From positions 682,001 to 746,000 of the forward strand of contig OZ017758.1 of assembly GCA_963969365.1 (NCBI GenBank): 64,000 bases of DNA, in the 5' to 3' direction. The DNA is from Asterochloris sp. CNOR1. Taxonomy: Eukaryota > Chlorophyta > Trebouxiophyceae > Trebouxiales > Trebouxiaceae. Positions 3,601-55,700 of this stretch are shown one piece after another. Every line of letters begins with the position of its first letter. The stretch's first letter is position 1. The translations under genes were made by a program, and so were the position numbers. The notes under the pieces were generated by a model. The model was not told the DNA's origin. It did no database searches and was given only the letters and a program-made list of their open reading frames with translations.

Positions 3601-6600
3601 CATGTTGTCAGCGCTGCAGGCGAGCAGCTGTGCACTGCTGAGCACTGCTACACTCCTGCAGGAGAACAAGAGCCTGAACATATTCAACAGCCGCCTGGTG
3701 CTGGCCTCTCCTGAGACGGCCACCGACATGGATTTTGCCCGCATCGAGGGTGTGGTGGGGCATGAGTACTTCCACAACTGGACCGGGAACAGGGTGACAT
3801 GCCGCGACTGGTTCCAGCTGACCCTCAAGGAGGGGCTCACCGTCTTCAGGGATGAGGTCAGCACTGAGGGCCTGCAGGCATAGCAAAGTGCTCACCACAC
3901 CTGCTGCCATGAAAGTACTCTGCAAGTCTTGGTGGATGTCAATCATCAGCAGCTGCTGCTTGTGCTTTTGCATGACCCTGGAGTGTGGAGGCTTGCTCCT
4001 CTACCTGTCTGCTGATGGCCCCTGGGCGCGGAGCTGACTGAGCCCTGTGCCATAGCAGGCAAACATGTCCATTGAAGGTGCTGCTGTGTATCAGCTTGTG
4101 CATTGCTATGTCCAGCAGGTCTGGCAGCAGATTGTGAGCACCTTGAAGCATGTGCAGAAAGGTGCAGTGGGACAGGGCGGCCACCACCGTTGCGCAGAAG
4201 CTGCATCAACCTCGCCTGCACCTGCTGCCTGCAGGAGTTCAGCAGTGACATGAACAGCCGCCCCGTGAAGCGCATCGAGGACGTGATGGCGCTGCGCATT
4301 GCCCAGTTCACAGAGGACAGTGGGCCACTGGCCCACCCCATCAGGCCAGACTCCTACATCAAAATGGTGAGGCTCCACACATGCTTTTTGCAGCTGCTTA
4401 GCCCTCTCCTGGGAAATGGTGGAGAGGACTCCGAAGCATGCCGTCCTCTCAGATTGTCTAACGATATGCGGAGACGCCAATGGTGTCTCTACCAGCTGCT
4501 CTGACCTGCATGTGTGCTCAACAGGGGCTTGTCTATCAGGGGCCTGCCCCTTGCCGCTGCGCGGACCTGCGCAGATGCCTGTCAGGATAGCGTGGTCTGA
4601 AGGCTGGAGCCCTGCCAGAAGAGCTGCCAGCCTGCTGCCGGTGGTTGCTGCCAAATGCACACATCTGGACCATATTGGAAAGTATAATGATCATGCCGGC
4701 GGGAGCCAGCATCCAACTGTTGCGCGCAATTCACAGCACAGCACGCTACTTGGCCTGCTGTAGGACAACTTTTATACCAGCACTGTGTACAACAAGGGTG
4801 CCGCCATCATCCGCATCTACCGCACGCTGCTGGGCAAGGAGGGCTTCAGGTGAGGCTGATGTGGCCACAGAAGGAGCACACAATGCTGCTCATGCATAGC
4901 GAGGGACGCCATGATCGAGCGAATAGTGCACACCATGGCTGCTGATGGGCACCTCACAGCTGTGAGCTTTTCGCTCTTGGTTTCTGGCTGCTTGAGCCCA
5001 GTGCCGCCTGCTGCATGGTCATGTCAGGAAAGGTGCTCCCCTTTCCACTTTGAGGTAACGCTCTGCTGTCTAGCGGCATGGGCCCCTCATCTACTTGATT
5101 GGCCCTTGTCGAATTAAAAGGCACCCTTTGTCTGTTGTACTCAACCCCCAAGCTGCGAGCGTTGCCTCCCTCGTGTAGGCGTGGCATGGACCTGTATTTT
5201 GAGCGGCATGATGGCCACGCAGTCACCTGCGATGACTTCCTGGCGGCCATGGCAGATGCCAACAAGACCGACCTGAAGTCTGTGGGCACCTGGTACGTAC
5301 AGGCCTTCTTGTTCTCCGTCATTGGCGCATACCCATGTCACATTGTGAAGCAGCCCCAGTGAGCTCGTCGCTCTGCTCCTCAATGCAGCTTCCAAATGGT
5401 GGCACCCTGCAGCACAGCCTGAGTGCTGTCCAGAACCTGGCTTCTGAAAGTTGTCAGGTCTGGGTGTCACGAGCTCCCTCCCGGGGTTGCATGGGCCCTG
5501 TTGAGCTGCCCACACTGCAGAGCTGTCTGCAGGTATGAGCAGGCGGGCACCCCATCCCTGCATGTGTCAACCCACTACGATTCCAGCGCTCGCACCTTCA
5601 CAATCAAGACCAAGCAGCACACCCCTGACACACCTGGCCAGAAGGGCAAGAAGCCTGTCATGCTGCCCCTGGCACTGGGCCTGCTGAGCAGGGACGGCCA
5701 TGAAATGCCGCTCCACCTGAAGGTACTCTGTCTGTCTTGTGCTCAAGCCTGTTGGTGTACAAGGCCAATGTCAGGCAGCTGCTGATTGTGGAGGACCTCT
5801 GCATAAGTGACGTGAGTGCCCTGCTGCTGGCTGCTGTGTGTTCTGGCTGGCCCAGTGTCCTGAACTGGACAGCTGCAGACTGTCACCAGCGATTTTGCAG
5901 CCTTTAGGGTCCACGGCAGTGATGTGTAGAGCAAGCCACTGGCCAACAAAAGCTTGCAAGTGGCTGCGCTCGGCTGATGCTGCCGCTGCCTGTGCAAACT
6001 GCAGGGCTGCACAGAGATGCTTGGCACCGTACAGATGCTGCACATCTAGCAAGCCATCATTGCCTGAGATAGGCCAGTCTATTCTGCAGAGTTCACAGAG
6101 CAGCCGAGACCAACCAAATCCTGCATGCCAAGCATGCTGCCATCGCCTGACATAGGCCATGCTGCCAGGGTCCACAGGGAAGCTGGGCATTGAGCAACTG
6201 CTGTTGGAAGCTGCGTGTCAGGCATGCTGCCACTGCCTGACAAGCGCCTGCCCATGCTGCAGGGCTCCACCGAGAAGCTGGGCACCAGCACTGTGCTCCG
6301 TGTGGAGCAGGCGCAGCAGGAGTTCGTCTTCACGGAGGTACCTGGCGAGCCGGTGCCCTCCCTGCTGCGTGACTTCAGCGCGCCTGTCAAGATGGAGGTG
6401 GAGGGGCAGACGGATGATGACTTGGTGTTCCTTCTCGCCCACGACACAGGTCAGCCAGAGCTGGCATTGCATAACCTCGCTTTCTGGTGTCTGCTCGCCT
6501 GCAGCCCATCACACCACCAGCGCAGGCTGTGACACAAGGGTGTATGTCATGGCGATTGGGATGCTGGCTGCATGACCAGCAAGCAGGTTGCGTGTCCTGC

Positions 6601-9600
6601 AGCAGCCAGCAAGTCAATTCAGGCCTGAGGGCGCCTGCCTTACCACAATTTCAGTTTGCCGAAGTCTTGTGGGGTAAGTTAAAGGCTATCGCGCATTGCT
6701 GCTGGTGTGCATGAGCGCGAACAGCTGCCACTCGTGTTCCTGCAGACCCCTTCAACAGGTGGGAGGCTGGCCAGCGCCTGGGCAAGAAGCTGCTGGTCAA
6801 GCTGTACGAGGCAGCTGGCGACTCCAAGCAGGTCAGCATGGCAGCCAGGCCAGACGTGAAGTACGCAGTCAGACTTGCTGGCTGCCCTTCGTTTAGCTGC
6901 CTTTGACGCCAGACTGTGTGCCAAATCCCTGCGACTCCTGGCTGCACTATTGGCCAGTACGGTGATGTGCACCTCCAGGGCCATGTCTGGCTCGTTACTG
7001 GTCAGGGTTCTATTCGCCCACCTCAGCTGCACCTCACCATGCTGCCTTCCTATGCCAATGTCAGTGACTCTGATCCAGGGCAGCGCTGCTATGCTTTTCA
7101 AAGCTCACCGACCCTGGCAGTGCAGGTTAAGAGCGTAATGGCTGGCGGCAGTCTGGTAATATTGTGAAGGCTCTGATGACGCTTGGCTGCTGCAGAAGCA
7201 ATGACTGGCAGACCACAATTTGGCGCCACATACTGTCTCTGGAAAGGTGGTGTTACATGGTTTGCTTCGGGGTGCAGGGTGACTGTGCTCATCCGACTGT
7301 AGCTTTTCTAGACTACAAGCTTCAGTTGCTCCCTGCCTCCTGGTGGTGAGAGCCTGGCTGACGGCACAGCTACAGCAGGTGGCGTGAATTGTTGACAGCA
7401 GCACGCTGATGCCTGATGGGGCTCCAATTCAGCCGTCAGTGTTCTGTAGCGGGCCAGCCTGGGGTACTGCGTGGCTCCAGCTGGTGGTGCAGAATTCAAG
7501 ATATGACAGGATATGGCCTCTGGCTTGCATGTTACTCCAGTGCAGGGCAAGAGCCTGAAGGGCTGCGTGGCTTCTACAGAGGGAGTAATCCTCTGCTGAC
7601 AGCAGGTAATGATCCCCATTTCCTTGTGCAGGCATGAACCTGAGGGCCCCATGGCTGCAGCTGGTGGTGAGGCCCCAAGTAAGTGGCCTGTAGCTCACAA
7701 ATCCTCTGCTGGTGCAGGGCAAGAACCTGGAGGACCGCGTGGCTGCAGCAGGCGGCGTGGACTCCAAACTGGTGGAGGGCTTCCGCAGCATTCTGAAAGA
7801 CAGCAGCCTGGATGGCGCTTTTGCAGCTGCCGCCATCACCCTACCCGCCAGCAGCGAGGTCATCGACCTCCTGCCTGGGGCAGACCCTGTGCGTCTGTTT
7901 GAAGTCAGGTGAACAATGTGCTGCAGCTTGAGACTACACCTGCCATTCACAGGTTGGTCATAGGGCTCTAGGCATGCATGCTGCAATGTTGAGGGCTTTT
8001 GCAGCCACAACAGCAAAATAATTCCGCCCCCGGCAGGAGGCAGGCCCTGCGCGTCTGTTCAATGTCAGGTAGGCGAGGTGTTGAGGCCGAAGAACACACC
8101 TGCCGCCAAGCCCTTGGCGAGAGCGCTCGGTCACGCATCCTGCAGAAGGTATGAACTTCTGCAGCCACAGCCAAGCCCTGCAGGCCAGCAAGGTCATTGA
8201 CCTCCTGCCAGAGGCAGATGGTCTGCAACTCATCAAGTTCTGTACAAAGCGTGCCAAGGTTTGGTTGTGCAGATGCGAGCAATCGTTGTCGTTCTCAGCT
8301 GTGCATCATGAGAGAGCACAGGGCCTATGTGGCTGCAGCATCAGCCCTGCTGGCGCACGACAAAGTCAATGACACCTACTACATGTCCCCAGACCCTGGT
8401 GCAGGCTTCAGCTGGGTCTCTCTGTGCCTCTGCCACTGCTGCAGGATGCTGGTGGTAAAGCAGCTGTTGAGCCTGCTGCGGCCAGACCTGGAGGCAACCC
8501 TCAAACCTGATTGTGTTGGCTCGATGTCGTGCCTTGACTGCCCGTGCCACTCTGTGCCATTGCAGAAAGACTGTGGTCAAGCAGCTGGCAGCTCAGCTGC
8601 AGCCAGACCTGGAGGCGGCTGTCAAGCGCAATGACTCACCCCCTGGGGAGGCTTACTCGCCTGACGCCAAGTCGGCTGCCAGAAGGATGATCAAGAACAC
8701 TGCCCTGGGCTACTTGGCCAAGCTGGGAGAGCCTGACATCAGGGCAGCCCTGCTGCGGCGCTTCAGGGAGGCCAGCAACATGACTGACCAGATGGCAGCC
8801 ATGAGCAGCCTGGCTGATGTTGAAGGTGGGCGCCCTGAGAGGCATGGACGGGTCTATTGCTGACAGTGGAGGCTCACTGTGATGACTCTGCGCATTGGGG
8901 CCTCTGCCCAGTTGTCTTTGCAGAGCTTAGAGGAGGCTGGCCAGATGGCAGCCATGGGCAGCCTGACTACTGGTCGCACCTGGATGTGCGTGGACAGTGA
9001 CTCTGCTTTTGGGAGGCATGCACTTAGTGCCTGCATGCTCAGCTCACTGAACACATGTCGGTGCCAATATGGAGAAAGCGGGGCTGCCTTTGGCTGTGCA
9101 CAGGCAGCTTTGTGGTGCCCTTGGTGCCACACTTGGGTGACCATGGATCCGCGGTGGCAGGCAGCAAGCTCATGCTCAGCCTTTGCTCTGGCAGGGCAAT
9201 ATGACCAGGATGCAGCTTCACCCCTGTGCCTCTGAAGCAAGCAGGCACAAGGATAGTTGAGAAATCCTCTGCTCACTCGCCCATGTTGCAGGCGAGGAAC
9301 GGCAGACGGTGCTCAAGGAGTTTTATGAGCAGTGGAAGGATGAGAGCCTGGTGGTGCTCAAGTGGCTGGGCATCCAGACCAGCAGCAACATTCCTGGGAA
9401 CCTGGCGGCTGTCAAGAAGCTCCTGGACCACCCTGCCGTCAATCTGAACAACCCCAACACAAACTACACTGGTGAGATGAGGCACTGCTGAACCCCAAGT
9501 GCAGCCATCCTCAGCCTCCCTTGCTATGGTGTGGATGGTTTCAGCAGTACTGACCGCACTCTCCTGCCTGCAGTCTTCCTTGGCTTTGTCCGGAGCCCAG

Positions 9601-10368: not shown

Positions 10369-13300
10369 ATGTCTGCAGCAGCCCTGCTGGTCATCTCAGC
10401 GTTGGGTGAGCAATTGGATTAAACACCATGTCAGCCAGGGCAATTGGAGGTGTATACAATGCTGCAGTGCCGCTTTGAGGGATCCTTGTTGCCAATCAGT
10501 GCGAGCTGATGGCCGTCAAGGACGGCTGCCTGGGAGGTGGGTCTTGCTCATGCTGCTTGCCATTTGTCATGGTCAAGAGACACAGCAAACCCCTGGTCGA
10601 TGAGCTCATGCTTGTTCCAGTGGCGCCCTTCAACGGCACTGGGGCATGTGCATGGATGGTGACAGCGACAGAAAGCAGGTCATCGGCGGCAGTGGGTGCG
10701 GCCCATGCAGCTGCAGAGGCCATCAGACAGCTGTGAGACCACATTGACTGGTGCGTTTGCAGGGCCAGAGTCAATGAGCCTGGTCAGCAGCTGCAACATA
10801 CTGAGTCTTCCTGCCTGCAGCGGCGCCCAGTATGGCCGCAGGCAGAACACTGTGGCCTGCTGAGCCTGCAAAGGCATTCTCTCATCAGCACGTTCGTAAC
10901 AGGCAGAAGGCCTTGTTACTCCCAGTGCAGAGGTGCTCAGTGTGGCCCTGCTTATGCTCCAGGGCCACCCAGATCAGGAAGCACCCCACTCCTCCTCCTG
11001 AATGAGGAACCAATCAGCAATGATACCTCGTTTGCACAGGCACGCCTGGCGTGGCCAGCTGGGCCAGCCGCGGCTTTCCACTGTTACCGAGCCTGGGACC
11101 TGCTGCCCTGCCTGCCTGCAAGTGCGCTCAGCATGGACGGTGCACAGGAACAGTCCCCATGCCATCCAGATTGAAATTGTTGCGCCCTCTCATGCCCTGC
11201 AGCTCAATGGCACCTCAAAAACTGAAGGGCACTTGGCCTGGTCTCCCTGCGTATGTGTGGCCGACATGCATCATCAATCAGCTCAACCACCTCGGGAATG
11301 ACTGTTTATGATCGAGCTGGGATGAGTCTGTAGCACTCTTGATCACTGCTCTGACTGCAGGCGCGCTAAGCGTAGCCAGTGGGCAGACGACAGTGGCAAA
11401 CGCGATCCCTGCGTCCGGCGCCATCCCCGTCAACCTGAGCACCTCGGGGTGGCGCTTCAGTGCTGGCGCCAATGGTCCCCTGCCCGCCCTCTATGAGTAT
11501 GCAGCCGGCTTCTCATTGGTGACCTGCGCCCCACGGCCCCCAAATGTTCTCAACGTGACTATTAGCAAGCTGGTTGTGCCGGGCGCTGGCGCACCCGGGG
11601 ACGCCATCCGCGCGACTGTTCGCACGGAGCTGCCCTCCAATGTCACGGCAGGTGAGCATGCGAGTCGCCCATGTTGGACAGCAATCTTGCAGCCACCATT
11701 GATTCAGGTCCGCACACAGGCTGGTCAGGGGCAGGTGGTGGGGCAGGGAAAATTGAGCGCCTGGCACCGCTATTCGAAGTCACTGCAGGTGGGCATGCAA
11801 GGTGCCGATGTCAGAGCGCCCATCAGCTCTGCGCTGTCTGCGACTGTCTCTCCAGCGTAGACACTGACTGCCCACGGGCAGGTGTGGGATGGGCGTCACT
11901 GTGAGAAGGGCTGCGCTCAGGAATGCCTGCACTCGCAACCTCATAGTGGGGGTGGCGCCACTGCCCACACAGCACCGCCCAGCCATTGCCTCTGCAGCTG
12001 CCTGATCAAGCTCTGTGAGTGTTTGTGGTTGTGGGGACACATCGACTCGGCCAGGAGGCCGTGTTGTGGCAGGCGCCAGCAGGGCCCCTTGGCTCAGGGG
12101 GCCTGCGCAGGCACTGGTGTGCTGCTCAAAGGCACAGGCCAGCCTGACCTTGAACAAAGCTAGATGCGTCCACCTCCTGCAAGCCTCTACAGCACAGCAG
12201 GGCGGCAAGCAGGAATCTGCTTTTGGTGTTCAGTCCAGGCAGCAGCTGCGGCCAGGCATCTGCCAGGTGTCTGGATTGGACAGACCGTCTCAAATGCGCC
12301 CAACACGGCATCAGCCAGCACTATGCAGGCTTGCCGCACAGTGCAGGCCCTCTGGTGGTGGGGAGGCAGCTTCACAGACCCGCTGGGTGGGGGAGGCAGC
12401 TTCACAGACCCGCTGGGTGGGGGAGGCAGCTCCACCAACCCCACCTGACTCTGCAACAAGAGGCAGCACACGGCCCCTTGTGCTGCCTGGAGACACCTCA
12501 GAAGCCTGAGAGGCATACCTTGGCATTATAGAGGACGTCCACAGTCCCCCAACTTGCAGGTCATGCCAGCACGATGCGCTCAAACGACATACACACCCAT
12601 GGTGCTGCCTGCAGGCTCATCACGGCCTGCTGAAGCGGTCTGGCACATCACTGTTTGCAAACCTATCCCCCTCCTACCCAACGGCCTGTTGGCGAGGTCT
12701 GGCAGCTGAACCTGGACATCTGCAGTCCAGGGGGACTGCGCCCCACGAGGCTCACTAACCAGTGCTCCTGCCCTCTGCCTGCAGCCTCCTCAGACCCTGT
12801 GGGCGCGGTCTGGCAGCTCACAGAGGACATTTTCATGGACCTGCAGAGCGGGAACGTGTTCCTGCTGCAGCAGCCTGTGGTGGGCACCTTCCAGCAGGCC
12901 CTCCAGGGCCTGTATGCGTCCAACACCTCAGCTCCCGGGGCAGCTGCCCGCCCGGTGCAGTTCCTGGATTCGACCCAATTCTATGCTGGGGCAGTGGCAG
13001 GGGTGGGCTACCAGACGTTGGCGCCGCCGCCTGTGACAAGTCCTGCAACGTCTGGGTGGGCTCCTGCTGCTGCACCACTCCTCATGCATGTGGTGGATGA
13101 CAGGGCCGCCGCCTCCCAGAGTGTTTGAGGCTGACATGGCAGCAGGCCAGCTCCAGCCATGTGCTTGGGAGAAGCTGACGCAGCTGCCTGTAACAGGCTG
13201 TGCCAAATCAGGCGTCAGTGCTACCACCCAGAGCCTTCAACCTGGTCCTGCATTGTTGCTGTGCACAGCTTCCTGGCCCCACCAGCACCTTGAGACCAGT

Positions 13301-16969: not shown

Positions 16970-19900
16970 TCAGCTCTCCGGCTGCTCGTTGCCGGTCAGC
17001 CTTTGCTTCAGCTCAGATTTGCGGCCAGTGACCAGCATGTTGCGTTCCCGCAGTTCCTCCTTGAGCTGGGGCACTGTCATGTTGTCTGTCAGGCGCTCCA
17101 GCAGCTCGGCCTAGAGGCAGGCAAGTCCAACTTTTAGCAGCTGACCTTAGAGGCTTAGCCTGAAGGCGGTTCCGCGGGAGACAATGCTTGGAGCAGCGAA
17201 GGCCAATGAGTGCCATGTACCCCCAACAGCAGAGGAAGGCAGCCTCCGCAAAGGCAGCTCCACCTCAAGCAGGCGCACCACTCTGCATACCTTGTCCGTT
17301 GAGGCAGGCAGGTCCTGCCCTCACAGCACCACTGCAGGCTTGCGTACCCTGAGCCATACATGGGCAGCTCCATCTCCCACCGCAGACATCTTGAGACGGC
17401 CCCCCTCACTCTGCAGGGCTCACCTTGACCTCAGAAGAGGCAGCCCCAGGTAGATAGTCTCCCCTTGAGCTGCACCACAGCTGACCTCCGTCACAGACAC
17501 TCCCAACACAGGCTTGTGCAGTCTCACCGCAACGGAGGCAAACAGACCCCATCGTGCAGCATCGCACCAGCTTAATGCCCAGGACAGGCAGACATATTGA
17601 GGATCATGCCCGCCGTCGACCTCTCATCTTGGAGGGCTCCCTTCTGCAGTCTCAACTCGTGTCTGCACACCCTCTCACCCACCTTGACCCCCGAGACAGG
17701 GAGGCCCCGCTCCCGCAGGCGCTCCTTCAGCTGCGCCACAGTCAGCTTGCTCAGGTCATCCTTCTCAGCATCCTGCCCTGCTGAGCTGCCAGGCTTGGCG
17801 TGAGGCGCCGCCTGCTGCTCGCTGCTGCTGCTGCCGTCCTGCTCTCCAGCTGCTGCTGCTGCTCCCTCAGGCTCCACATACATGTCCTCAAGGCCTCCTG
17901 CGTGTGTCAGATGGATTGTGACCTGGCAACTGTGCTTTCAAAGGCCTCAGCAGACTACAGGTTTTCTCTACTCTCATCCCCGGGGGAGCTGACGGTACAC
18001 ACAGCCCTGGCTGTAAGACAGACTGATGCATCCTGCAGCAGACAAACCTGAGGCTGCCCAGCTTCCTGAGCGCCTCAGCTGATTGCAGAGGTGACTGATA
18101 AAGCATGAGAGGACGCACTCAGCCCCAGCTGGGTGCCTGAGCTGTGGCTGGGCAGCAAAACACATGCCAGAAGCAGGCCCATTGCCGGTGCTTAGGCTTT
18201 GCTAGCCACCACCTTGAAAGCCACTGTGAATGGAGCCGTGCATGGGGACGGTTGCAGGCTGGGACTGACCTGCAGGATTCTTGTAGACGATACCAGGGAC
18301 CTGGGAGATGGGCTCGCTGCTGTCCGCTGATGTGGGCTGCGGCAGGGTGTCCCCTTCTGGCAGCGTGGCTGCATACTTTTCCAGCTCCCTCTTGGCTGCA
18401 GCAGGCATCAGCAGTGTTTCCATTGCCGTGAATAACAGCCGTGACTGGCAGCAGCGTGACTTGCAAAAGGACTGCAGGTAGACAACGGGCCTGGCTTTGG
18501 AGTGCACAAGGCCGGCTCCCTCTTGGCTGCAACTGAACATAGCAGTTTCCAGAGATGCTCAGCAAGGCAGGCTGGCCGCAACCCATCCAGAGTACCTCCT
18601 CAGCCCCTCGTCAGTTGCAGCAGGCAGGCAGCAGTTCCTTTGATGGCAGGCAGGAGGTGCATGCATGCAGCGCTCTCCTGGTGCAATAGGGCCCTCCTTG
18701 CGCAGTGAGGATTAGCATTGTAGCAACAGCATCCATTTGCCGATCTAGCTCGAACTAGGATGGAGCAGCAACCCAGGTGGAGTGCTACGCAGCAATGTTG
18801 CTGGCAGCACACCAGAAGAGAGGATGGCCAGCACACTTCTGCAGCCAATGCACAAGCCTACCTGAGAGCATGTTGTCCCAAGCGCTCCCATGCAGAGCAG
18901 GCGTGTCGTTGTTGGGTCCCAGCAGCTCCTGTAGACGCGGCAGAGAGCTGTCAGAGGCACAACCGCTTCCAGGCACCCCTAGCAGCCAGCGAGCAACAGC
19001 ATTCATGCATCCCACAGCACGTGTTGGCCAGCACCTCCTCCAATGCAAGCTCCCGCTTGGGCCAAAGAGCCCACAAGCTGCACAGAGGTATCATGTCGAT
19101 GTCGCAGTTCTGGGCTGCTGCACACAGCTGCATCAAGGGGCCTACAAGTGGCCCCTGCAGACCGGCAGCCAGGCTTATGCCTGACGCAAATGCACAGCAC
19201 CCAGCAGAACGTTTTCAGGTGCAGCACACAGTTGCACCTCTTCAGTGTACTCCTGAACAGCAGCAGCCCCGCTCCCAGCCAGCGCTTCCTTTGACTTGTC
19301 CTCTTGGGCGGCAGCCTTCTTCCTGCGGCTTTCACCCCGCGCGCGCGGCTTAACTGCGTCGGCCCCGTCCGCAGGTGCCGCCGCTTTCTTTCTGCGACTG
19401 GTGGCCCTGGCACGCGGCTTGGGGGTGTCTGACAGTTCTGCTGGGGCTGCACGCAGAGACAACCATTGGGCCATCTATGCTGCCTCTGTAGTCTCCCTTT
19501 GCACAGAAAATGGCTGCTTTGGCACAGGATGCTGTGCCTGCTTCGCTCTTGTATTGCTGCCTTTGCAAGAATCAATGTGCACACAGACATGCACTAGGTG
19601 CTGTGCCTCGCCTCAAGCTAGCACACAGGCCATACACGCTGTTGACCATCAAGCTGCTGTCCCAGCCATCAGGACCTGCAGCAGCCACAACCGATTTTGG
19701 AGTGGAGGAAAAGGGGCACATGGAGCACACCTGCTGCAGCCTTCTTTCTCCGGCTGACGCCCTTGGTGGTGGTGGCGGAAGCCCCGGGGGTATCAGCCTC
19801 GTCCGCAGGGGTGGCAGCCTTCTTGCGGCGGCTGGTCGCACGGGCACGCGGCTTGGGGCTGGCAGAAGCTGTGGTGGTGCTGCTCGCCACTGCCTGGGCT

Positions 19901-25000: not shown

Positions 25001-28000
25001 TTTGTGAAAGGGTGTGCTGTGCACAGGACTGCTTGGGGCGACAGTACACACCTACAGCAACTGCCTCTGTGGGCATCAGGCCCCACCGCAGCTGTATCTA
25101 TCAGGCTCAGGCCAGCAATGCCATGCAGCGCTTGAGGGGCAGTGCCCTGGACCAGTGGGGGTTGAACAACCCGTCCAAAGCCAGGAGTCCAGGGTACCTA
25201 TCAGTGCTCACTTGGAAAGCAAAGTATTTCCTGACTACTCCAAAGTCGATCTGCGTCTCAGAAATCATCTTCTGGATGTGCCTGTTCAGCAAGGTCAAGA
25301 GCATGGGCAGCACCGCCAGGAAGATGGTCAGCGCAAGACCGGGCAGGATGGATGTGATGATGGAGTTGAGGATCTTGATCTGCAGCCAGCGGACACATGG
25401 GTCTGGGCAATTGCACCCTGTCAACGCAAGTCTTCTGGGTGACCATGACTGCCAGTCTTGTAGATGTGACTCTGACTGCTGGTGTGGATACCCGGTCTTC
25501 ACTGCACGCCATGTGCAATTCTCCCAGCCAAAGCTGAGGGTGCCATCGCGCTGGAATGTCACCCTCAGCAGGGCTGCCAGCCAAGGGACACTCAACCTCA
25601 TAAAGGGCAGGATCAGGAACCTGAATGCACTGGGGCCCACAGACTAGAGATGCAGGCCAGGCCAGTCGAGGCTTTCATGGTGGCAGGTGCACCCAAATGC
25701 TCAGTGCTCACGTCCGTGATGACTCTGAAGAAGTGGTACCTCTGCAGTTTCTGGACTTGAATCAGCGCCTGAACAGCACCTGCAAAGCAGACAGAGTTCT
25801 GTATGGGCCTGCCGCTGGCAGCAGGGACTCAGCAGCTGCCACCAAGATGGATCCACCCCGCATGAAGTGTCCTGGGCGGGTGCCTGCAAAGTCTGCCAAC
25901 ACACATCACACAGTGTGCACCGCATCACAGGTGCAGCACTAGGCCAGCCGCTGCACACACACAGCAGAGCGACTCACTGACAGGGATGAAGTAGAAAGCG
26001 CACATCACGAAGAAGATGGCCCACGCTGCAAGCGTCCGTAGGCCGCGCACTCCGCTGGCCTCGCCCAGGTTTGACCACACGATTTCCTGCAGCAGGAGCA
26101 GTCCAGCACTGTGCCCGCTCAGGTGGCAGAGGCTGCATGCTGCCGGATAATGAGCGGGACCCCTGCAACCTGCAGCATGGAGGCCCCAGACCACACCTGT
26201 CCTTCAAGTGCAGCGCAGGGGCAGTCTGCAACCTTGCTCTGCTGGGTGTTCTAGGCACTGCCCTTTCAGGGGCGCAGCAGGAGGGCAGCAGGTTGACCCA
26301 GCCGGAGATTACAAGCCAAGGGGCCCATGATATGCTTTGGTGGACTGGGGTGCTGTGAAGCTCCCACTGCACATTGCCACAAGACAAGTACATACAGCCT
26401 GGCGTGCAGGTACCTTTCTGCATGGCTGTGACGCCTCCCCAGTGCCCCTCACTTGGTCAGATTGCGATCTTTGCTGGTAGCTATGTGCCCTGCACATCTG
26501 GTGACATTTGCACACAGCGCAGCAGCTCATCTTGACGTTGTGCAGCTGTGGTGCGGACAGGAGGGCAGGTTGATACCCACCTTGGGAGTTGGCGCTGCTG
26601 AGGTAGTCCAGTAGCGCTGATCATGGTGCATCATGCTGGTGCTGGCCACAGTCTGGGTCCTGTGGTCGTTGAAGGTGACAAATGCAGTCGGGATGGGCTT
26701 CTTGCGGGCCGCTTCCTGCATGAACAAGACCTGACATGTGACTGAGCAGCACAGGTGTGCATGGAGGCAGTTTTCAATATGATGTGGTGCAGTCTTGGGC
26801 TTGTCTGAGTCTGCAGCTCAAGACAGGCCTGTCGACTGCCAGCTGAGCCTGCTGTGTGGTCCATCAGTGGATCGTCCCAGACCAAACAATTGAAGCAGAT
26901 CCCTGCTGCTGTGGTGCAGCAGATGTGACGAGCCAGCAGAATCAGGGGGAATGAGCAGTACTCACAGCAGGCTGAGGCTGCAGCCTGCTCATTGACATGT
27001 GTGGCCCATGGGTGGACCAACAGACAGGCAAAGCTGGCAGCGTTACTGATAAAGGTGTTTCAGCACTCTGCCTTAGGATCATCAGCTGCTGTGGGTCATT
27101 GCGCAACCAAATCCAGCGGGCACAGCTGGTGAACTTGCAAATTCTGATGTTGACAGCACCCCTGCCCCACCTGCTGCTCCTTGATCTCCTTCTCCAGCTC
27201 TTGCAGCCTGTCTGCCAAGAACTCTATGGAATCCACCTTGACAGGCTTCTTGCCGTACTTGTCCTGCCCCCACTTGCCAAACTGCAGCCCGGACACGCGC
27301 ATCTGCAACAAAGCACACGAGGGTTTGAGATTATTGGTATGGTTGCTGGAGCTACAGACTGTAGCTTATTCTAAAGCAGCTTCCAGTCCCTGCTTTCAGA
27401 ACTGCAGCCCTGGCACACACCATCTGCAGAGCGAGACTTCCCACTGGCATCCGAAATGCAACACCTGCTGCTGCCTACACCTCTGGTTCGGCCTAAGGCA
27501 GCATATTCCCACGACTTGTCAAGCAGCCTGATACCAGCGTCTGCAATGGGGGACAAAGGAGCTGAGCTGACGGCATGACGGTGCCTTGGGCCCTGCCTGC
27601 ACCTGCAAGACAATGCCACGCCCTGTAGCCATACTGCAAGACACCACATACACAATCGGGTCTCAAGGTGGACTGCTGCTGCATGCGCCCCTGGTGTCCT
27701 GAGGCTCTTGCAGACCCTGCATCTACCACCAGGGCTCATCGTATGACTCCTCTACAGTGGGAGGAGGCTGCATTAGACGTGCGTGTCGCCTCAGAGAGGT
27801 GTGGGAGGAGGCCCTGCAGAGCAGCTCACTGTCTTGCGCTTCTTGATCTTCTTGCCACGCTCCATCTTCATCTGGTACAAGTCCAGGGTGTCCTCCAGCT
27901 TGCGCGTCTTCTTTGTGTACTCCTTGTACAGCTTGTCCAGCTTCTGCAGGAATGTAAGAATCATTTAGTTGCAGCACTCATGTGCGCACTGGGTGGGCAG

Positions 28001-31000
28001 CTTGTCAAGCGCCTGCAGCAGGTCGCACCGGGGCATGCCCAACTGCAATGGTGTCCAGCAGATGTGACAGGGATGTTGGAGGCAGCTCCTATACAGTGCA
28101 GCTGGGCCAAGGCAGTGCTCTTCTTGGGCACCTGCAACACGACAGACATGTGCATGTGTACAAATTACCAAGCACCTCAACAGCAGGGTGCAAGCCAATG
28201 CTGTGTGTGATTGCTACTTGCTTTTGCAGCGCCTGAGTGAGTGGGAAGTGTCATGCAAAAGTGTTGTGTTGTCTGCACCAGGCAGACTGGTACCGCACAA
28301 CAAGTGCAGAGGACACAGCAGCTGCCCTGCACCTGGCTGCCGGTGCAAGCCCTCCCTGCTAGCGTCTGGTGCATGCGGCCGAGCCGACCTGCACCTGGCT
28401 GGCCGTGCAAGGCCCCCTTGCCAGCGTCGTTCATGTGGCCAAGTCCTTGCTGCCGGCGGGCTTGGCCAGGAGTGCCACTGTCCCCTGAGAGTACCACCCT
28501 AACAACACTGTCACCCTCCAGGACTGTCACCGTCCCTGGACTGCCAGCGCACCCCTGAGTCCACAGCCAGGCTGACGTCCTTGACCTTCCCGGGGAAGAC
28601 CTCCTGGAACTCTCTGCGCACCATCTGCTCCCCAGTCAGCCCTGATGCCAGCATGGCCTCCGCCTGCACATGTCAGTGGGGAATATGTGATCCACTGCAG
28701 CATCATTTGGTAGGTGGTGTCCTCGGGGTGATGCTTGCAGCTGTCGGCCGGCGACACGACAGGTGCCAGTGGTAGCCCCAGGGCCCAATGTCAGCATGGC
28801 CTCTGTCTGCACATGTCAGTTGGGCAATGGATGGTTGCTGTTTCTGGGGTGATGCTTGCAGTAGTCACACCTGGGCGCAGCTGTCGGCCACCGACACAAC
28901 AGGTGCCAGTGACAGCCTCAAATCAAGCTTGGCCAAGAATGCACAATCAGCCATGCCCCCACAGTAATTGTGACGAGCGCTCACAGTCCAGCTTGCCATG
29001 CAGGCAGTGCTGGCGGCAGCCGGCATACCAGCAGCGATGCATGGGGTCACAGCCGGCTAATCCTTTCACAGGGAGTGTGGCCACCAGCTTGGGCAAATGA
29101 AACCCCGCCAGCAGGCAGGCCAGGCCGCAGCAAGGATGCAGGACGCATCCACATGATGCAGCCAGAACAGCAACTGCACCATGCACGTGGGCAGGCTGCC
29201 CTTCTGCAGCCCAGCCCTCCACCAAAGCTCAGCATGTCCCAGCCTGCATGTCATGGAGATGAGCACCTTGGGGTATGCCTCAAAGTTTGTGAGGCGGGGA
29301 TGGCTTGCGCCAGGCTCATCATGGTCCTGGTGTCCGCCCTCCAGCAGGACATTCTGGCTGCGCAGCAGGTCAGGGTTGTACTCATAGGGATGCGTGCTGC
29401 CTGCAGTCACCACCAACATCCTATGCTCACGGTGTGACAGCTGCAATTGCAGGAAGCAGCACATCGCATCAACAGCTGTGTGATAGCTGCAGCCTCACAA
29501 CACTGGCTGACAAGATGTCAGGCCACTGCCACTGCTTAGTTGCATCCGGACACTGCAGCAGACACAGCGGCTGCCAGCTGCCAGCACCCATTATCAGCCT
29601 CAGATCTGACTGCAGCTGTTCAACTGAGTTGCTGTGGGGCACTGCAGGAGGCTCTGCTGTGGTGCACGCAGCTGCTGGAAGGCAGCTGGCAGGTTCCTCT
29701 GCTGGCTTGTGTGAGTTGTCGCCCCACCTGCCGGTGACGTGTGGGTGCCCTTCGCGGTGGCCTGTGTCTTGCCAGACGCCGGCTCAACAGTCACGCCACG
29801 AGCAGCCGACTGCTGAGCTGTGGAGCCGCCTATGACACTGCAGCCACAAGAACGCAGACTCAGCATTGTGGGTCAGCAAAGCAGATGGCCACAGGCACAA
29901 TCGGCCAGTGGTGGCCTTGCTGGTCTCTCTGAGTTTGCACTTGCAAATATTCCGCCTAAGGAGCAGCGGCACCACATGGACAAGGGCAACTGTGGCACAG
30001 CAGCCTTCTACACGTGATGCAGGCTTAGCACAGCACCCCCCAAGAAGGGAAGTAGGGCCAGGCAGGCATGTAGGCTGCCACCCCAGACCTGGCTGTGTGA
30101 GACAGGCATTGCCTGTTCACTGCCTGAAGCAAGCATGCCTCAGGATGCAGCGCCAAAGAGGTGCTGAAGCAGGTGATGCATGAAGCCAAGTGGCTGCTGC
30201 CGGACAGCACTGGGTAAGGCACTTGCTTTGCCGACCTCTGTGGCGCCTCTCGTGCATCCTGGTATCTCCTTGAGGCATCACTGAAGCCTGCCGGCCTGAC
30301 AAGCCCCACCTCAATTACCGACCTCTTGCGCCAGTGGGGCCTCCTGAAATTTGCCCAAGGCATCATTAAGGCCTGGTGGCCTGGCCAGCACCTGCTCGTC
30401 AACCCACCTCTGCGGCGCCTCCGGTGCATCGTAGTACTTCCCAGAAGCATCGCTGGAGCCTGACGGCCGGGCCAGCTGCTGCTCAGCGTCCTTGAACTCG
30501 TCAGACTGCCTCTGCTGCTGCCCCTTGGGTGCGCTCTGGACTGACAGGCTCTTCATCCCCGGCAGGCGCGAGGCCTGCTTCCCAATCATCACCACTGCTT
30601 TGCCCGCCAGCCCCTGCACAGCACAATCAGGCAGTGAGCAAAGTCGAGCCGTCACACCCAGGGACCATCATGAGCTCGTCTGCGAGCCCCTGCACAGGCA
30701 CTGTCAGTGAGTGAATTGAGAGTGAAATTCCACAGCAGCTCAGCTGAGATAAGAGAGCTACTGCAGCATGCAGCTCAAGGCCATTAGGGCTGCTCGCCAG
30801 AGAAGGAAAAGGTCCGCAAACCACCATGCAGCCATGGCAGTGGCAGCCGCTCGTGTGCCCACCTTGTGCAGGCAGGGGATGTCGTCCACCATGATGGTCA
30901 ATGATTCTGTCCCAGCACGGGCGCTGTTCAGGTGTGCAATGCGCAGCTTGACCGCCTCCTTGTTGTAGCGCCACAGCTGCCAGTACACGAACAGGGACAC

Positions 31001-36008: not shown

Positions 36009-39000
36009 TCACCTCTCAAAGCTGGGGGTCCTGTGCCTCTCCAGGAGTCCATCAGCTGCTTCTGCAGCTTCGTCAGCAGCCAGGTCAGGGGCCCTGCCAG
36101 CAGCAGGTGCTGCCTCCGCCTTCCTCTTGCCTCCCTGCTTGGCTCTGGGCTCAGGGGCAGGGCAGGAGCCGCCTGCAGCCGAACCAAACGGCTGCTGCCT
36201 GCTGCTCTGCCTGGTCACCTTGGCAGGCGCACGGGAGGCAGCAGGTGCGGCCCCACTTGCAGGCTGCTGTTTGTCGCCATCACAGGCTGGCTGGACCGTG
36301 GGCTGTGCAGCGGCAGGCTGTGCCCGCTGCTGCTGCTCCTGCCAGCCAGCCACCACCTTGCGGGGCCTGTGCTTGATGTCCTTGGCCTTGGCCTTCCTGT
36401 GGTGGCCTGCAGCACAGCAGCAGGATCAGCGCAGCTGCCACCTCAGGGCCGGGCGTCTCAGCCCTGCCGCAGATCATGGGGGCAGGACGTCATCAAACAT
36501 CAGCTGCATACAAAGCAAAGGGTCCTGACAGCACTGGACAGCACGCACCCACGTGCATCACATTTGACTCCTGAAGTTAGAATTTTGAGGACAAGCGAGC
36601 TAAGCTGCACCACCGTGGCCTTTACCAGCCTGACAAAACACCACATGGTGGCGCTGCCAATCCGTTGCGTGCCTGAAGACCGCAAACCCCCGTGGCAGCC
36701 GCACCTGTGGCTGCCTGGCACCTGCAGGCCAACCTCACACCTAGCGGCCTGCCGCCAGCCTGCCACTGCAGACGTTCAGGCTCCCACCTGTGGCTGCCTG
36801 GTTCTTGCGTGTCAGCGCCTGCGCCAGCACCTCAATGGCGGCTGCGTCATTGGCCTCCTCAGCTGCCCCCACACGCTGCAGGGGAACCCCCTCCTCCCGC
36901 GCCTCCATGTCAGCCAGAAACTGTCGGATGTCAGTGGCTGGCAGGTAGTAGCGAGACCCGTCGTCAGGGAAGCGGATGACCACACAGCCTGCAGAAGGAA
37001 GCAGGTCTCAGGGAAGCAGGTGACCCCCGCAGCTGGTGACCAGGGTGGGCTGAAGTGGTGCCGTTGCAGCAGCACAGATGACGCAGTGGAAGGACCTCTG
37101 TTGCAGGGCAGAGAAGCAGCCGCTCATGCAGCCTGCGCAGCAGGCGCATGAAAGGAGGCTGGAGGAATGGCTGGAGGTGAAGCTGCTCATGGAGCCCTGG
37201 ACTTGCAGCACCACCCAAACAGCCTGCCTGTCAGGCTGCCAAGTAAGCCAACTGCTGTAGCCGTGCAGAGGCTTTGCTGGAGGTCAAGTGGATCTCAAAG
37301 CAAGAGCATACCAGGCCTGAGCACTGTGCGAGCTCAGCCCTAGGTGGCAGTTGGGCAACAGGGTCTTGCTTCGACCTGGGTGCATCCTCACTCAATGCGC
37401 AGCCATAAGCACATGTGAGGCAGCAGCAGGGCTGGCAGGTGTGATGACCTGCATGGGAGTGGTCCCTCTTCATGACCTGCCCTGTGTAGAACACGTCTGG
37501 CAGGGGGACGCCGAAGACCACCCCCGGAATGTCCACCATCTTGCCCACCACATCATCGTACGGGGACTTGCGCTTCAGGCGGCCAGAGGCTGCAGGCACG
37601 CACTCGAGTGTGGGTCAGGCCACCCTGCCTTGGCGTCAGCCGATGGGCCGCCACCTTCTGCGCGTCACCCCAGCAGCCAGTGTGCAGGCTCCCATCCAGC
37701 TGGTGCACAAGCTGCCTGGGAACAGGCAGACCTGCAGTGCTGTGTTGTGCAGGCCAAGCAGCAAAGCAGGGTTGCGCTGAAACAGTCAGGCCTGCAATCC
37801 AGCTCTGGCAGCCAAGGCAGGCGTTGCATACTGAGAACTCATGCCAGTCGCCCCCCCTCACAGTGGCACAGGAGCACGAGCATCGTGCAGATGTACTCAC
37901 GCAGGCGGATGGGGCGCCCCTTCATGCCCGTCCTGGCATACACTGGTGCAGGCTTGGCCCCGGCCTCAGCCTTTTCCGCTGGGTGCTCCCCTGCAGCATC
38001 AGCATCCCTGCGCGCTGCAGAGGCCCCTCCTGCTGCAGTCTCGTCCTCACTGCCCTCTGAGGCAGGCTGGTGCTGCCCCCCGGGCAGCGAGGTGCTGGCG
38101 GCACTGCCACCGGCACCAGCCATCCCCGTTGCACTGGAGGCGGGAGGCTCACTGGCCTCTCTGGCACCCTCTGCAGCTGCCGGAGGGGCCTTGCGCTTGC
38201 GCGCCCGCTGCCTGACTGCAGGCGCCTCTGCTAAGCCTGGCGCTGCGCTGGGCGCGGCAGGCTGCTGGCTTGTGCAGGCGGCGTCCGGAGGGCGAGGGGC
38301 CCCCTGGGCACCAGTGCTACGGCCCTGAGCTGGCCCTCCCTTTGGAGGTGGAGCCTGCTCAGCCTCTACAGCAAGAGCCTGCCCTGCCTTTGCTGCTGGC
38401 GCTCGCCCTTGCTTTGCAGCTGGGGCAGCGCCAGGCGCTGCTGAGGCCCCTGCTGGCGCTGCGCCAGGAGGTGCATCCCCAGCAGCAGGCCTGTTGCGGG
38501 TGGAGGGCACATGGTGCCGCGCCTGCACAGAAAGACAGGGCACCGATCAGCACCCTGTGCAACAAGTGCCACATCAATGCACCTTAAAAGCTGGCAAGCC
38601 AAGCAGCCAGGGCTCCACACAAAGACTAGTCACGTCCCCAAAGGTTGCAACACCACATCACAGCCAGAGCACTATGGAGCTTGCAAATTCGTGGTGGCTA
38701 GACTCATGTGCACGCAGCTGAGCACTTGCCGACTCAGCGGCTGCGGTGCACGGCAGAGGGCCACAATCTGCAGTGGCTGCACACAGAAAGCATGTGCTTC
38801 CTGATCAGTGCCTGCCTGCACCACCTCCTCGCTCACAAAAGGCTGCCCCCACACTTCCCCTGCCTCTTGTGAAAGGAGCAGGTGTGTGCAGGTGTGTGCT
38901 CATGATTGCTTGCCTGCATCTCCCGCATGCGCTGCTCCTCCAGCACAGCTGCCAGTTTGGCCTCCTGCATCTCAGCTCGCAGCAGCTCTGCTGCAGAGTC

Positions 39001-52714: not shown

Positions 52715-55700
52715 ATGGCTGAAGAGCTGGAGAGCCTTGGAGGCGGCGATGCCCGTCTGGGGCACTTGACGGTGTGCGTCAAGCCAGCTCTGCTGCAGCA
52801 CATGGCCCACAGCATTCTGACAGCAAGCGGCAATGCTGTGCACCTGCTGGACCCGCGTGCAGCACCCAGCCTGCCCCTGGACCAGCGCAGCAGGACCTTC
52901 AGGCTGCCCAGCTGCAGCCAGGACGGTGACTGGGGTCAGGAGCTGCATGCCAAGCTCGGGCAGGCGAGCCTCAGCTCACCGTCTTCGAGTGGCGTCTTGC
53001 ATTGCCATGTGCCGCAGCTTGCACATGTTGCTGCTTGTGCACTGCTCAGCGTCCAGGCCCCTTGTTGCTGTCGCCGGGGCTGACACCGAAGCCGCAGCAC
53101 AAGCTGTTTGCTGCACCCACGTGACCAGACACAGACTCAGTCCTTGACCTGCAGGACGCAGTGCAGTGGCTGCTGGAGGGTTTTAACAGCGCAGTGATCA
53201 CCTTCGGGCAGGCGGCCACCGGCAAGTCCCTGGCACTGTTTGGCGCGGGGCAGCAGCTGGAGCAGCCCCTGCTGCTCAGCATGCTGAAGGACCTGTTCCG
53301 GCAGGCGCGCAGCTCGGCCGACTACAGGGTGGGCATGGCCTGCTGGGAGCTGCAGGACGGGCGCGTCAGGGGCCTGCTGGCTACCGACCAGCCTGCTGGC
53401 AGCGACCACGGAAGCTGCGCAGGTGAGGGAAAATGCCCTGCAGGGACCTGAGCAGCCTGCCAGCAGCAACCGCAGGAGCTCTGCAGGTGAGGAGCAAAAG
53501 CCCTGATGCCGGCGCCCTGCTGGCCTGCTGGCTGCTGGTTTTGCCCGCCTGGCAGGCAGCGAACTGGGATCTGGTGCGCGCAGAAGCCTATGCTGAGGCA
53601 ACGTCCCTGATGGCACCGCTGCCAGGCCTGATTGAGACCATGCAGGAGCAGCTTGCTGGGTGCACGTCCCACTGCACCATCCTTAAGAGCAGCGCGGCAG
53701 CGCTCCTTTTGTAAACCGAATTAGTGCCCAGACTGCCTCTCCTCACCAGTTACAGGCTTCAGCACACAGCATGCCTGTGTGGAGGTGGCCTCCCTGTCGG
53801 ACGCACAGGATGCGCTGCAGCAGGCGCAGCTGAACAGTGTCAACTGGGCGACCAACTCGAGCGGGCGCCTGCAGCCCGTGAGCAATCGTGCCCACTTCTT
53901 CCTCCAGTTGCAGCTGTACAACAGGCGAGGCTTGCTGTGAATGGTACCTGCTGCTGATGCCTGCTGGTCACAGGGTAAGGCACATCTGTCGTGCAGCCAG
54001 CAGAGCGGCGCTCACACAAAAGGACTGCGAGGACCTGGCAGCAGCTTAGCACCCAAAGCATGCCTGCCATGCTGCACCTCTTACCACGCACACAGCCCAC
54101 AGCACATGTGACAGAGTTGCTGCTGAGATGGAGCAAGGAGGTCTTCAAGATGCAGCACAGTTCTTGCCATCAGCTGAAGCGAGGTCCAGGCACAGCCCAT
54201 GGCATGCTGCTGCAGGAGCACGCAGCACCTGAGCATGCTGCACGTGGTGGACCTGGCAGGTTCCCACTCTCTCAGCGGCGGCAGCACCCTGGCTGGCGGG
54301 GCAGCAGACATTGGTTCAGACGAGGCTCTGCGCCAGCAGGTGACCTCAGCATGTTGTTAGTATTATACTGCACTGATGTGTGCCCAAGCCTCAAGGGAAG
54401 GGATGATTATGATAATGTTAGGATACATGCGCAGATGTTTCAAACAGATCCAAGTGTCATGAGTGAGCTAGGACCTGCCTTGGTGGGCAGCTCCAATGGG
54501 TTGGGCTGCGCATCTCAGGCTGCTGTGTCCATGGGGGTCGCAAATTGCTTTGACAACAGCTGCAATGCCACAGATTGTTGCTTATGGCATGTTGTGTAGG
54601 CTGCTGGCTGGCTTGACAAGGCTGATGCAATTATGGAGGCTGGTTTGACAAGAGCTCTGGTTTCAGGGCATGCATGCATGTCTGGTCGGCTCACAGACTT
54701 TTGCGGTATATGCAGGAACAGCGTGAGCGACGGGCAACTAACCAGGAGCTGTTGGGGGTGACACGCATGATCACAGCTTTGGCACAGGCGCAGACTGCTG
54801 GTGCTTCAGGTGACTGTGGGTGTCAGGGAGGGTGTGTGGGATCTAGTGAGTGCTTCCCTACAAGTAGGGTCACAGCCTGTATGGTGCTTGGCATGCAGCC
54901 TGCTGCAGTCTACACAGCGGTGCAATAATCTGGCCGGCCAAGTGCATGGCAGGGAGGGGCTGCATGACCCAGCTTCAGAAGGTATTATTTGCCAGGTGTG
55001 GCCAAAACAGGGCACTGTGCTGCAGGTGGCAGCACAGTGGTGTCTGTGCAGGACAGCTGGCTGCTGTGCTGGTGCCAAACATGCTTGGCGCTGCACGCCC
55101 ACCATAGCAAGACCTTGTGGCGAGACCTTGTGAGCGAGACCTGTGCCCCATGCTACAGGCAGCAGTCCAGCAGTCTCTGCGCGGGACAGCCGGCTGCTGG
55201 AACAGGTGACCCCGCTGCTGGCAGGCAACTGCCGCACCTTCCTTCTGGCCTGCGTGTCCCCTCACGCTGCGGAGTATCTGGACAGCCTCAACACCCTGCG
55301 CATTGCCAGCAGGGCTCAGGGCATCAAGGTGATTCAAAACAGATTCAACACAAATGTTTCTGAGATCTGTACTGTGTGGCATAGGTGATGTGAGCTCAGC
55401 ATGCTTCATGCATAGTTAATTGAGAGCCTGTATTGAATCAGCGGCATCTGTTGTCTCTGGGCCCATGGCATGCCCTTGTGAAGGTTGTGTCCTCTGCAAA
55501 GTTCAGCTCCTGTACACTGGCAGCTCAGGGGTTTGCTTGCATGCCTGGGCCCAAAGTCTGGCCCGAACTGCTGCAGACCGCCTGCATGAGGCTGGGGCAG
55601 GTGGCACCAGAGGCCATCCGGCTGGTACCTCTCTGGAGGGCGCTGTCATGGAATGCTGCACAGGCCCGGACGCCGCAGCCACAGCCCGTCCCAAGGTGGA

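What the first reader, a model, noticed from the sequence alone, without database searches (positions are those of the whole stretch)
5985..8985. Introns built from ladders of decayed exon-edge copies
In the M1 aminopeptidase gene at least four neighbouring introns contain several degraded tandem copies of the adjacent exon edge, each including the acceptor or donor site. Steps are about 70-170 bp and decay increases away from the exon. The same pattern recurs in six other genes of this window. This suggests a lineage-specific process: repeated tandem duplication across exon-intron borders enlarges introns and leaves spare splice sites. It differs from introner transposons, because each copy matches its own neighbour rather than a common element.
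Basis: partly seen in the sequence, partly recalled or inferred. Interest (0 to 1): 0.85.

Follow-up and report, generated by a model that had tools for sequence, protein, structure and literature searches.

The report
Old tandem duplications lengthening algal introns
Nearly a third of the introns examined in this probably green-algal genome contain decayed copies of the neighbouring exon's edge, left by short tandem duplications of roughly 100 bases that seem to have happened mostly in one past period.

Summary
In the window plus ten 20-kb samples (264 kb), 71 of 404 exon edges match their own intron, against 13 of 8080 control comparisons; 64 of 215 introns carry a copy. A held-out 40-kb stretch agrees: 5 of 44 against 1 of 880.

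The best-preserved case is a clean tandem duplication at offset 119, with 56 intronic and 65 exonic bases aligned. Copies decay without visible coding constraint.

Decay does not increase away from the exon (15 against 12 comparisons). Targeting of exon edges is not required: random ~100-bp duplications of one old age, with only the exon copy protected, can give the observed ratio of edge to intron-only pairs.

Unexpectedly, the copies have almost one age: a single-age model beats constant birth by about 20 log units, ladder copies form a near-star, and 3 of 119 annotation-free pairs exceed 85% identity. I read this as a past episode of small tandem duplications that enlarged introns. RNA use and kinship are untested.

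The parts
5533..5722 (+). M1 aminopeptidase exon (DUF3458 Ig-like region)
   Evidence: HMM gene model; Pfam PF11940; aligned to E. coli PepN
6005..6054 (+). decayed copy of the acceptor edge of exon 6263-6449 (TGCAG kept; offset 258)
6157..6189 (+). second decayed copy of the same acceptor edge (offset 95)
6263..6449 (+). M1 exon whose first ~50 bp are the source of the ladder upstream
7349..7386 (+). copy of the acceptor edge of exon 7718-7908 (offset 373)
7458..7499 (+). copy of the same acceptor edge (offset 266-268)
7546..7586 (+). copy of the same acceptor edge with TGCAG just before it (offset 172)
7631..7678 (+). copy of the same acceptor edge (offset 86)
7718..7908 (+). M1 exon; acceptor edge copied upstream, donor edge copied downstream. 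The donor at 7909 follows the protein homology; the final HMM put the exon end 5 bp upstream
8008..8059 (+). copy of the donor edge of exon 7718-7908 (offset 159-160); the gapped alignment covers 160 positions at offset 160
8156..8218 (+). second copy of the same donor edge (offset 334)
8452..8504 (+). copy of the acceptor edge of exon 8566-8825 (offset 121-124)
8566..8825 (+). M1 exon (DUF3458_C ARM repeats)
8937..8968 (+). copy of the donor edge of exon 8566-8825 (offset 153; alignment stops 10 bp short of the edge)
12685..12724 (+). acceptor-edge copy in the next predicted gene, intron 11652-12784
17424..17480 (-). donor-edge copy, intron 17111-17682
27382..27416 (-). acceptor-edge copy, score 17, intron 27303-27829
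30236..30397 (-). two donor-edge copies (30236-30313 and 30328-30397), intron 29401-30407
36199..36252 (-). acceptor-edge copy, score 17, very short intron 36173-36256 (weak)
36695..36747 (-). acceptor-edge copy, score 18, intron 36407-36787
37639..37690 (-). donor-edge copy, score 18, intron 37590-37861
53437..53486 (+). donor-edge copy, intron 53423-53755
55029..55066 (+). acceptor-edge copy, intron 54340-55158
55659..55866 (+). two weak acceptor-edge copies (55659-55711 and 55809-55866, score 17 each), intron 55329-56232
57365..57411 (+). donor-edge copy, intron 57179-57949
59368..59420 (+). donor-edge copy, intron 59354-59771

Best explanation
These are fossils of small tandem duplications, with units mostly about 70-150 bp, that fell on the genome without regard to exon borders. 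A duplication spanning one splice site is tolerated: splicing at the outermost site still gives the same mRNA, so the extra unit becomes intron and the intron grows. The intronic copy then decays as ordinary intron while the exon copy is held by selection. That is why such pairs stay recognisable at exon edges after many intron-intron pairs have faded. Most duplications seen date from one past period (about 0.25-0.3 substitutions per site in the intronic copy), with few since. Shown: tandem copies, own-neighbour matching, no visible coding constraint, age peak. Inferred: random placement, tolerance through splicing, break repair as the cause. The cause of the peak is unknown: either a burst of mutation or a spell of relaxed selection that let slightly harmful insertions fix.
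For: Own-intron matches 71 of 404 edges against 13 of 8080 control comparisons; full exon against own intron 73 hits against 3 in control, 52 of 73 starting within 10 bp of the facing edge. Least decayed case: 121 bases aligned at offset 119 across an acceptor, 65 of them exonic, a whole unit, with a 7-bp match between its two outer breakpoints. Gapped pairs occur also inside introns (38), in label-N sequence (5) and in exons (16), against 67 exon-intron pairs and 25 ambiguous of 151. Simulated random placement with one age, K 0.25-0.31, gives edge:intron ratios of 0.98-6.4; observed 67:38 = 1.76. Copy divergence at codon positions 0.199/0.202/0.268, 12 stops in 1257 codons, 7 of 76 gaps a multiple of three. 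Homogeneous divergence, chi2/df 0.91, n=78; logL -164.1 for one age K=0.25 against -184.1 and -186.1 for uniform ages. Near-star ladders. 3 of 119 annotation-free pairs at >=85% identity.
Against: Intron-side homology beyond the splice site is weaker than a simple neutral model predicts: 15 of 41 acceptor and 15 of 46 donor copies exceed the control 95% level, where 94% were simulated for fully homologous flanks; on the ungapped diagonal identity falls to background from about +6 at donors (16 hits) and about -20 at acceptors (20 hits). The random-placement fit leans on the single old age: with uniform ages the simulated ratio is 0.62-0.72, below the observed one. Array-level counts lean to edges more than pair-level counts (74 exon-edge, 14 intron-only of 101). 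In-frame stops are somewhat fewer than simulated (12 of 1257, 0.95%, against about 1.7%). The held-out stretch has higher divergence (0.281, n=9), so the age may not be uniform across the genome. One nearly perfect 68-bp three-copy intronic array exists (L023:545-748). Breakpoint microhomology is suggestive only (5 of 11 with >=5 bp against 19% in control).
Confidence: 0.64

Rival explanations
1. Edge-directed duplication: breaks or template switching concentrate at exon-intron borders (for example linked to splicing, R-loops or chromatin), so exon edges really are duplicated more often than intron interiors.
For: Edges 71 of 404 against 8 of 314 random intron 80-mers at score >=18; 74 of 101 arrays touch an exon edge; 52 of 73 full-exon hits start within 10 bp of the facing edge; uniform-age random placement gives a ratio of only 0.62-0.72.
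Against: Much of the preference is produced by selective decay: exon/noncoding pairs 82 against 54.5 expected under random placement, and the edge:intron ratio lies within the simulated range of the undirected one-age model. Units of about 100 bp reach the exon only near an edge by geometry alone. Intron-only and exonic tandem pairs exist.
Confidence: 0.19
2. A steady process still running at the same rate, the age peak being an artefact of assembly collapse or detection.
For: One near-perfect 68-bp array in the held-out 40 kb; short-period (22-54 bp) near-perfect arrays are present; collapse of near-identical copies in the assembly cannot be excluded.
Against: Steady birth cannot give fewer young than old copies: 0 of 78 below 6% divergence where about 13-15 are expected; log-likelihood about 20 units worse; 3 of 119 pairs at >=85% identity; ungapped segments of >=90% identity at offsets of 60 or more are all only 20-41 bp long. 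No N in the 264 kb and 21 contigs for 56 Mb suggest a long-read assembly.
Confidence: 0.15
3. The copies are functional alternative or mutually exclusive exons kept by selection.
For: Many copies keep AG or GT; the gene finder calls some of them exons; stops somewhat below simulation.
Against: Divergence equal at codon positions 1 and 2 and only slightly higher at 3; 7 of 76 gaps are multiples of three; the copies are partial (aligned median 43-46 bp); the M1 protein aligns to PepN across the introns without them.
Confidence: 0.03
4. Introner or other dispersed element inserted at splice borders.
For: Repeated units carrying splice sites inside introns.
Against: Copies match their own exon: controls against other introns 13 of 8080 and 3 hits against 73.
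Confidence: 0.01
5. Birth of new introns by tandem duplication of an AGGT-containing exon segment (Rogers model), the ladder being the new intron itself.
For: Same class of mutation; known cases in potato and vertebrates (passages seen).
Against: In that model a copy of the upstream exon's end lies at the intron's 3' end and a copy of the downstream exon's start at its 5' end. Such an arrangement was found in 0 of 40 and 0 of 33 hits; the copy lies nearer its own edge in 36 of 40 and 27 of 33. The least decayed copies carry intron-side homology too, so an intron already existed.
Confidence: 0.03

Closest known systems
Small tandem duplications made by break repair (rice insertions, Vaughn and Bennetzen 2014; paired nicks in plants, Schiml et al. 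2016; CST/Pol alpha-primase fill-in, PMC8355091)
   Same: Short tandem units of tens to about a hundred bp; [quoted passage not shown] The two PNAS papers were seen only as reference-list entries there (one search showed that one is not held).
   Different: Here they are dense, old and nearly of one age, and examined through their remains at exon edges; the mechanism is not shown.
[quoted passage not shown] Hellsten 2011; potato RdRp, PMC4974935)
   Same: Tandem duplication of exon-intron sequence supplies splice signals; the potato paper also notes an 83-bp tandem duplication inside an existing intron (passages).
   Different: Here existing introns grow and no new intron is shown; the passages I saw describe single genes, whereas this is spread over the sampled genome.
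Introners
   Same: Repeated units with splice sites inside introns (PMC9860276, search listing only).
   Different: Introners are one dispersed family; here each copy matches its own exon.
Direct repeats at intron borders (Rogers and Bendich 2025, PMC11782384)
   Same: Direct repeats near splice sites reported for all 213 introns examined (abstract and passages).
   Different: Those are 4-30 bp and come from comparing the regions of the two borders; here units are ~100 bp and pair one border with the interior of the intron.

Membership tests
Small tandem duplication (break repair class) | head-to-tail copies whose homology equals the unit length | tested here: met
   Best-preserved case: 121 aligned at offset 119. 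Only 11 of 151 pairs are this cleanly adjacent; median aligned length/offset is 0.60 for exon-intron and 0.82 for intron pairs, which I put down to decay
Small tandem duplication (break repair class) | microhomology or overhang signature at breakpoints | tested here: inconclusive
   5 of 11 clean pairs with >=5 bp shared, control 19%
Introner | copies in different genes belong to one sequence family | tested here: not met
   13 of 8080 control comparisons; 3 control hits against 73
Introner | the element constitutes a new intron with target-site duplication | not tested
   no empty-site relative available
[quoted passage not shown]
   0 of 40 and 0 of 33 hits so arranged within 15 bp
Tandem (mutually exclusive) exons | both copies under coding constraint | tested here: not met
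   codon-position divergence 0.199/0.202/0.268; 7 of 76 gaps multiples of three
Tandem (mutually exclusive) exons | both copies spliced into mRNA | not testable with these tools
   no RNA data
Minisatellite array | regular period with many near-identical copies | tested here: not met
   10 of 31 ladders have the second step within 15% of the first (null mean 20%, P=0.07); divergence about 21%

The most novel reading that the evidence does not exclude
This lineage went through one discrete episode in which tens of thousands to over a hundred thousand ~100-bp tandem duplications became fixed genome-wide (my rough extrapolation from 264 kb), adding a sizeable part of today's intron sequence almost at once. 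Exon edges preserve its date, so intron length here reflects a single event and not slow accretion.
Probability: 0.38. Interest if true: 0.8.

Novelty: new variant of a known kind. Interest (0 to 1): 0.6.

Why it matters
How introns lengthen without transposons is hard to document because neutral intron sequence erases its own history. A copy pinned to a constrained exon edge works as a dated fossil, so the rate, size and timing of intron growth can be estimated from one genome. If the single-age peak holds genome-wide, it would be evidence that intron growth can come in episodes, and would let one ask whether the cause was a repair defect or a drop in population size. The spare splice sites left behind are also natural raw material for alternative splicing.

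Tried and rejected
First gene-finder training from long ORFs called the M1 gene on the wrong strand; reseeded with the homology-confirmed M1 exons; two intermediate versions called too many tiny exons or too few exons before the one used. The idea that the copies are pieces ending exactly at the edge was dropped once the least decayed cases showed whole-unit homology; the intron-side deficit remains partly unexplained. A repeat-induced or one-type hypermutation origin was rejected: the substitution spectrum is broad (261 transitions, 290 transversions; CpG 0.31 against 0.17 for other C/G). Constant array period not clearly supported (P=0.07). Kinship: a viral-contig scan with the M1 protein gave one 38% hit of no use. 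The organism was not identified; 'green alga' is my inference from genome size, GC, intron richness and TGCAG acceptors, not a call. Literature: ten searches showed, in the listings I saw, no report of genome-wide decayed exon-edge copies or of a single-age episode of intron duplications; subscription papers are mostly not held. Rows dropped: 26 of 430 edges, in the 13 of 215 introns under 90 bp; 25 ambiguous, 16 exon-exon and 5 label-N pairs of 151 left out of the 67:38 ratio; 14 of 92 copies with under 20 codon-position-1/2 sites left out of the age fit; one intron of over 3000 bp outside the length bins.
Full report
Setting. The window is G000:C13:682001-746000 of a 56.4-Mb genome in 21 contigs, 58.6% GC. 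I had no other eukaryote genome, so everything rests on this one. I used the window plus ten 20-kb samples from contigs C1-C10, 264 kb in all, and later a 40-kb held-out stretch of C12.

Chance. A plain self-comparison (match +1, mismatch -1, ungapped) finds 51 segments of score 18 or more at offsets 20-600 in the window, against none at two control offset ranges of the same width. The ten other samples give 203 such segments, none in the control range; offsets cluster at about 70-145 bp, with a second group at 20-45 bp. The feature is not confined to this window.

Gene models. I built a small HMM gene finder, seeded with M1 aminopeptidase exons whose protein matches Pfam PF11940 and PF17432 and E. 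coli PepN. It finds 490 introns; 271 of 545 exons are confident and bound 215 introns. These are predictions without RNA support, and some long gene spans are probably fused.

Edge test. An exon edge (60 exonic plus 20 intronic bases) matches its own intron at score 18 or more in 34 of 202 acceptors and 37 of 202 donors; with other introns 8 of 4040 and 5 of 4040; on the opposite strand 1 of 202 and 0 of 202; random intron-internal 80-mers 8 of 314. Counting repeated hits there are 100 copies in 64 of 215 introns, 71 of them crossing the splice site. Whole exons against their own introns give 73 hits in 51 of 215 introns against 3 in control; 52 of the 73 begin within 10 bp of the facing edge. 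With the gene model frozen, the held-out 40 kb gives 5 of 44 edges against 1 of 880, and 40 self-offset segments against 3 in the control range.

What the copies are. The least decayed case (L014:6918-7157, offset 119) aligns over 121 bases across an acceptor, 56 intronic and 65 exonic, a whole unit, with a shared 7-mer at the two outer breakpoints. Gapped extension gives 151 pairs at offsets 45-300: 67 exon-intron, 38 intron-intron, 16 exon-exon, 5 in label-N sequence, 25 ambiguous. So the process is tandem duplication and is not limited to edges. Arrays touch 72 of 215 introns, mostly long ones: 4 of 57 under 300 bp, 15 of 57 at 300-500 bp, 52 of 100 at 500-3000 bp. Longer introns also offer more room for a match, so this supports growth without proving it. 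The arrangement expected for intron birth by exon duplication was not seen (0 of 40 and 0 of 33 hits).

Why edges stand out. Exon/noncoding pairs number 82 where random placement gives 54.5. In a simulation where units fall at random, are tolerated only if they span at most one splice site, and decay neutrally except in the exon copy, the detected edge:intron ratio is 0.98-6.4 for one neutral divergence of 0.25-0.31 and indel ratios 0.1-0.2; the observed pair ratio is 1.76. With uniform ages it is 0.62-0.72, and for single ages in the same first run 1.2, 9 and 23. So no targeting is needed if the copies are old and of one age; if they were not, an excess at edges of two- to three-fold would be implied.

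Fate of copies. Divergence from the exon is 0.199, 0.202 and 0.268 at codon positions 1, 2 and 3; 12 of 1257 codons are stops, against about 1.7% simulated; 7 of 76 gaps are multiples of three and 52 are single bases. The copy decays without visible coding constraint and the exon adds its own silent changes. AG survives in 29 of 41 and GT in 34 of 46 copies whose alignment reaches the site, at mean identity about 0.80. That is near what identity alone predicts (about 0.63), so spare sites are neither clearly kept nor clearly removed.

Age. Position-1/2 divergence averages 0.209 with no excess scatter (chi2/df 0.91, n=78) and no trend with distance. A single age of K=0.25 fits much better than constant birth (logL -164.1 against -184.1 and -186.1); K=0.3 and a narrow gamma do nearly as well (-166.2, -164.7). 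In ladders, near and far copies are equally far from the exon (0.224, 0.215), and copies differ from each other by 0.32 where a star predicts 0.375. Without any annotation, 3 of 119 pairs (offset 60 or more, aligned 50 or more) exceed 85% identity. Against this, the held-out stretch averages 0.281 (n=9) and holds one near-perfect 68-bp three-copy intronic array, so ages may differ by region and the process is not extinct.

Extent (my arithmetic, not a call). 92 copies on 430 edges, with simulated detection of 0.44-0.81 for edge duplications and about 100 bp of catchment per edge, imply about one duplication per 200-400 bp of noncoding DNA. The 43 intron-intron and label-N pairs with detection of 0.03-0.40 imply roughly 100-1300 in the 183 kb labelled noncoding. 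Scaled to 56 Mb this is tens of thousands to over a hundred thousand events.

Open problem. The intron-side half of the unit is recognised less often than expected: 15 of 41 acceptor and 15 of 46 donor copies above the control 95% level, where 94% were simulated for full homology. Short intronic parts, faster intron turnover, or a real edge bias could each contribute.

Verdict. The mechanism is ordinary in kind (small tandem duplication) but striking in density and in its apparent single age.

Noticed in passing
46838-46946: Perfect 27-bp unit repeated four times in a predicted intron: a young minisatellite, unlike the old ~100-bp units.
   Followed up: no
L023:545-748: Three-copy 68-bp tandem array, about 99% identical between the first units, in a predicted intron; units carry acceptor-like TGCAG or TTGCAG sites. 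The youngest long-period array seen.
   Followed up: partly
L012 and L013; L020 and L021: Two of the ten 20-kb samples have no exon-edge copy (0 of 9 and 0 of 10 introns), although L020+021 has intron-intron tandem pairs; regional unevenness was not tested.
   Followed up: no
L019:964-1240: Tandem repeats at offsets of about 102-117 bp with both copies in predicted exon (given there in joined coordinates 10963-11264 of L018+019); possibly a repeat-bearing protein or a mispredicted exon.
   Followed up: no
L022:2046-3107: An IMG/VR contig encodes an M1 aminopeptidase relative, 38% identical in the best segment; the 1062-bp match covers query residues 1-361, so without introns there.
   Followed up: no
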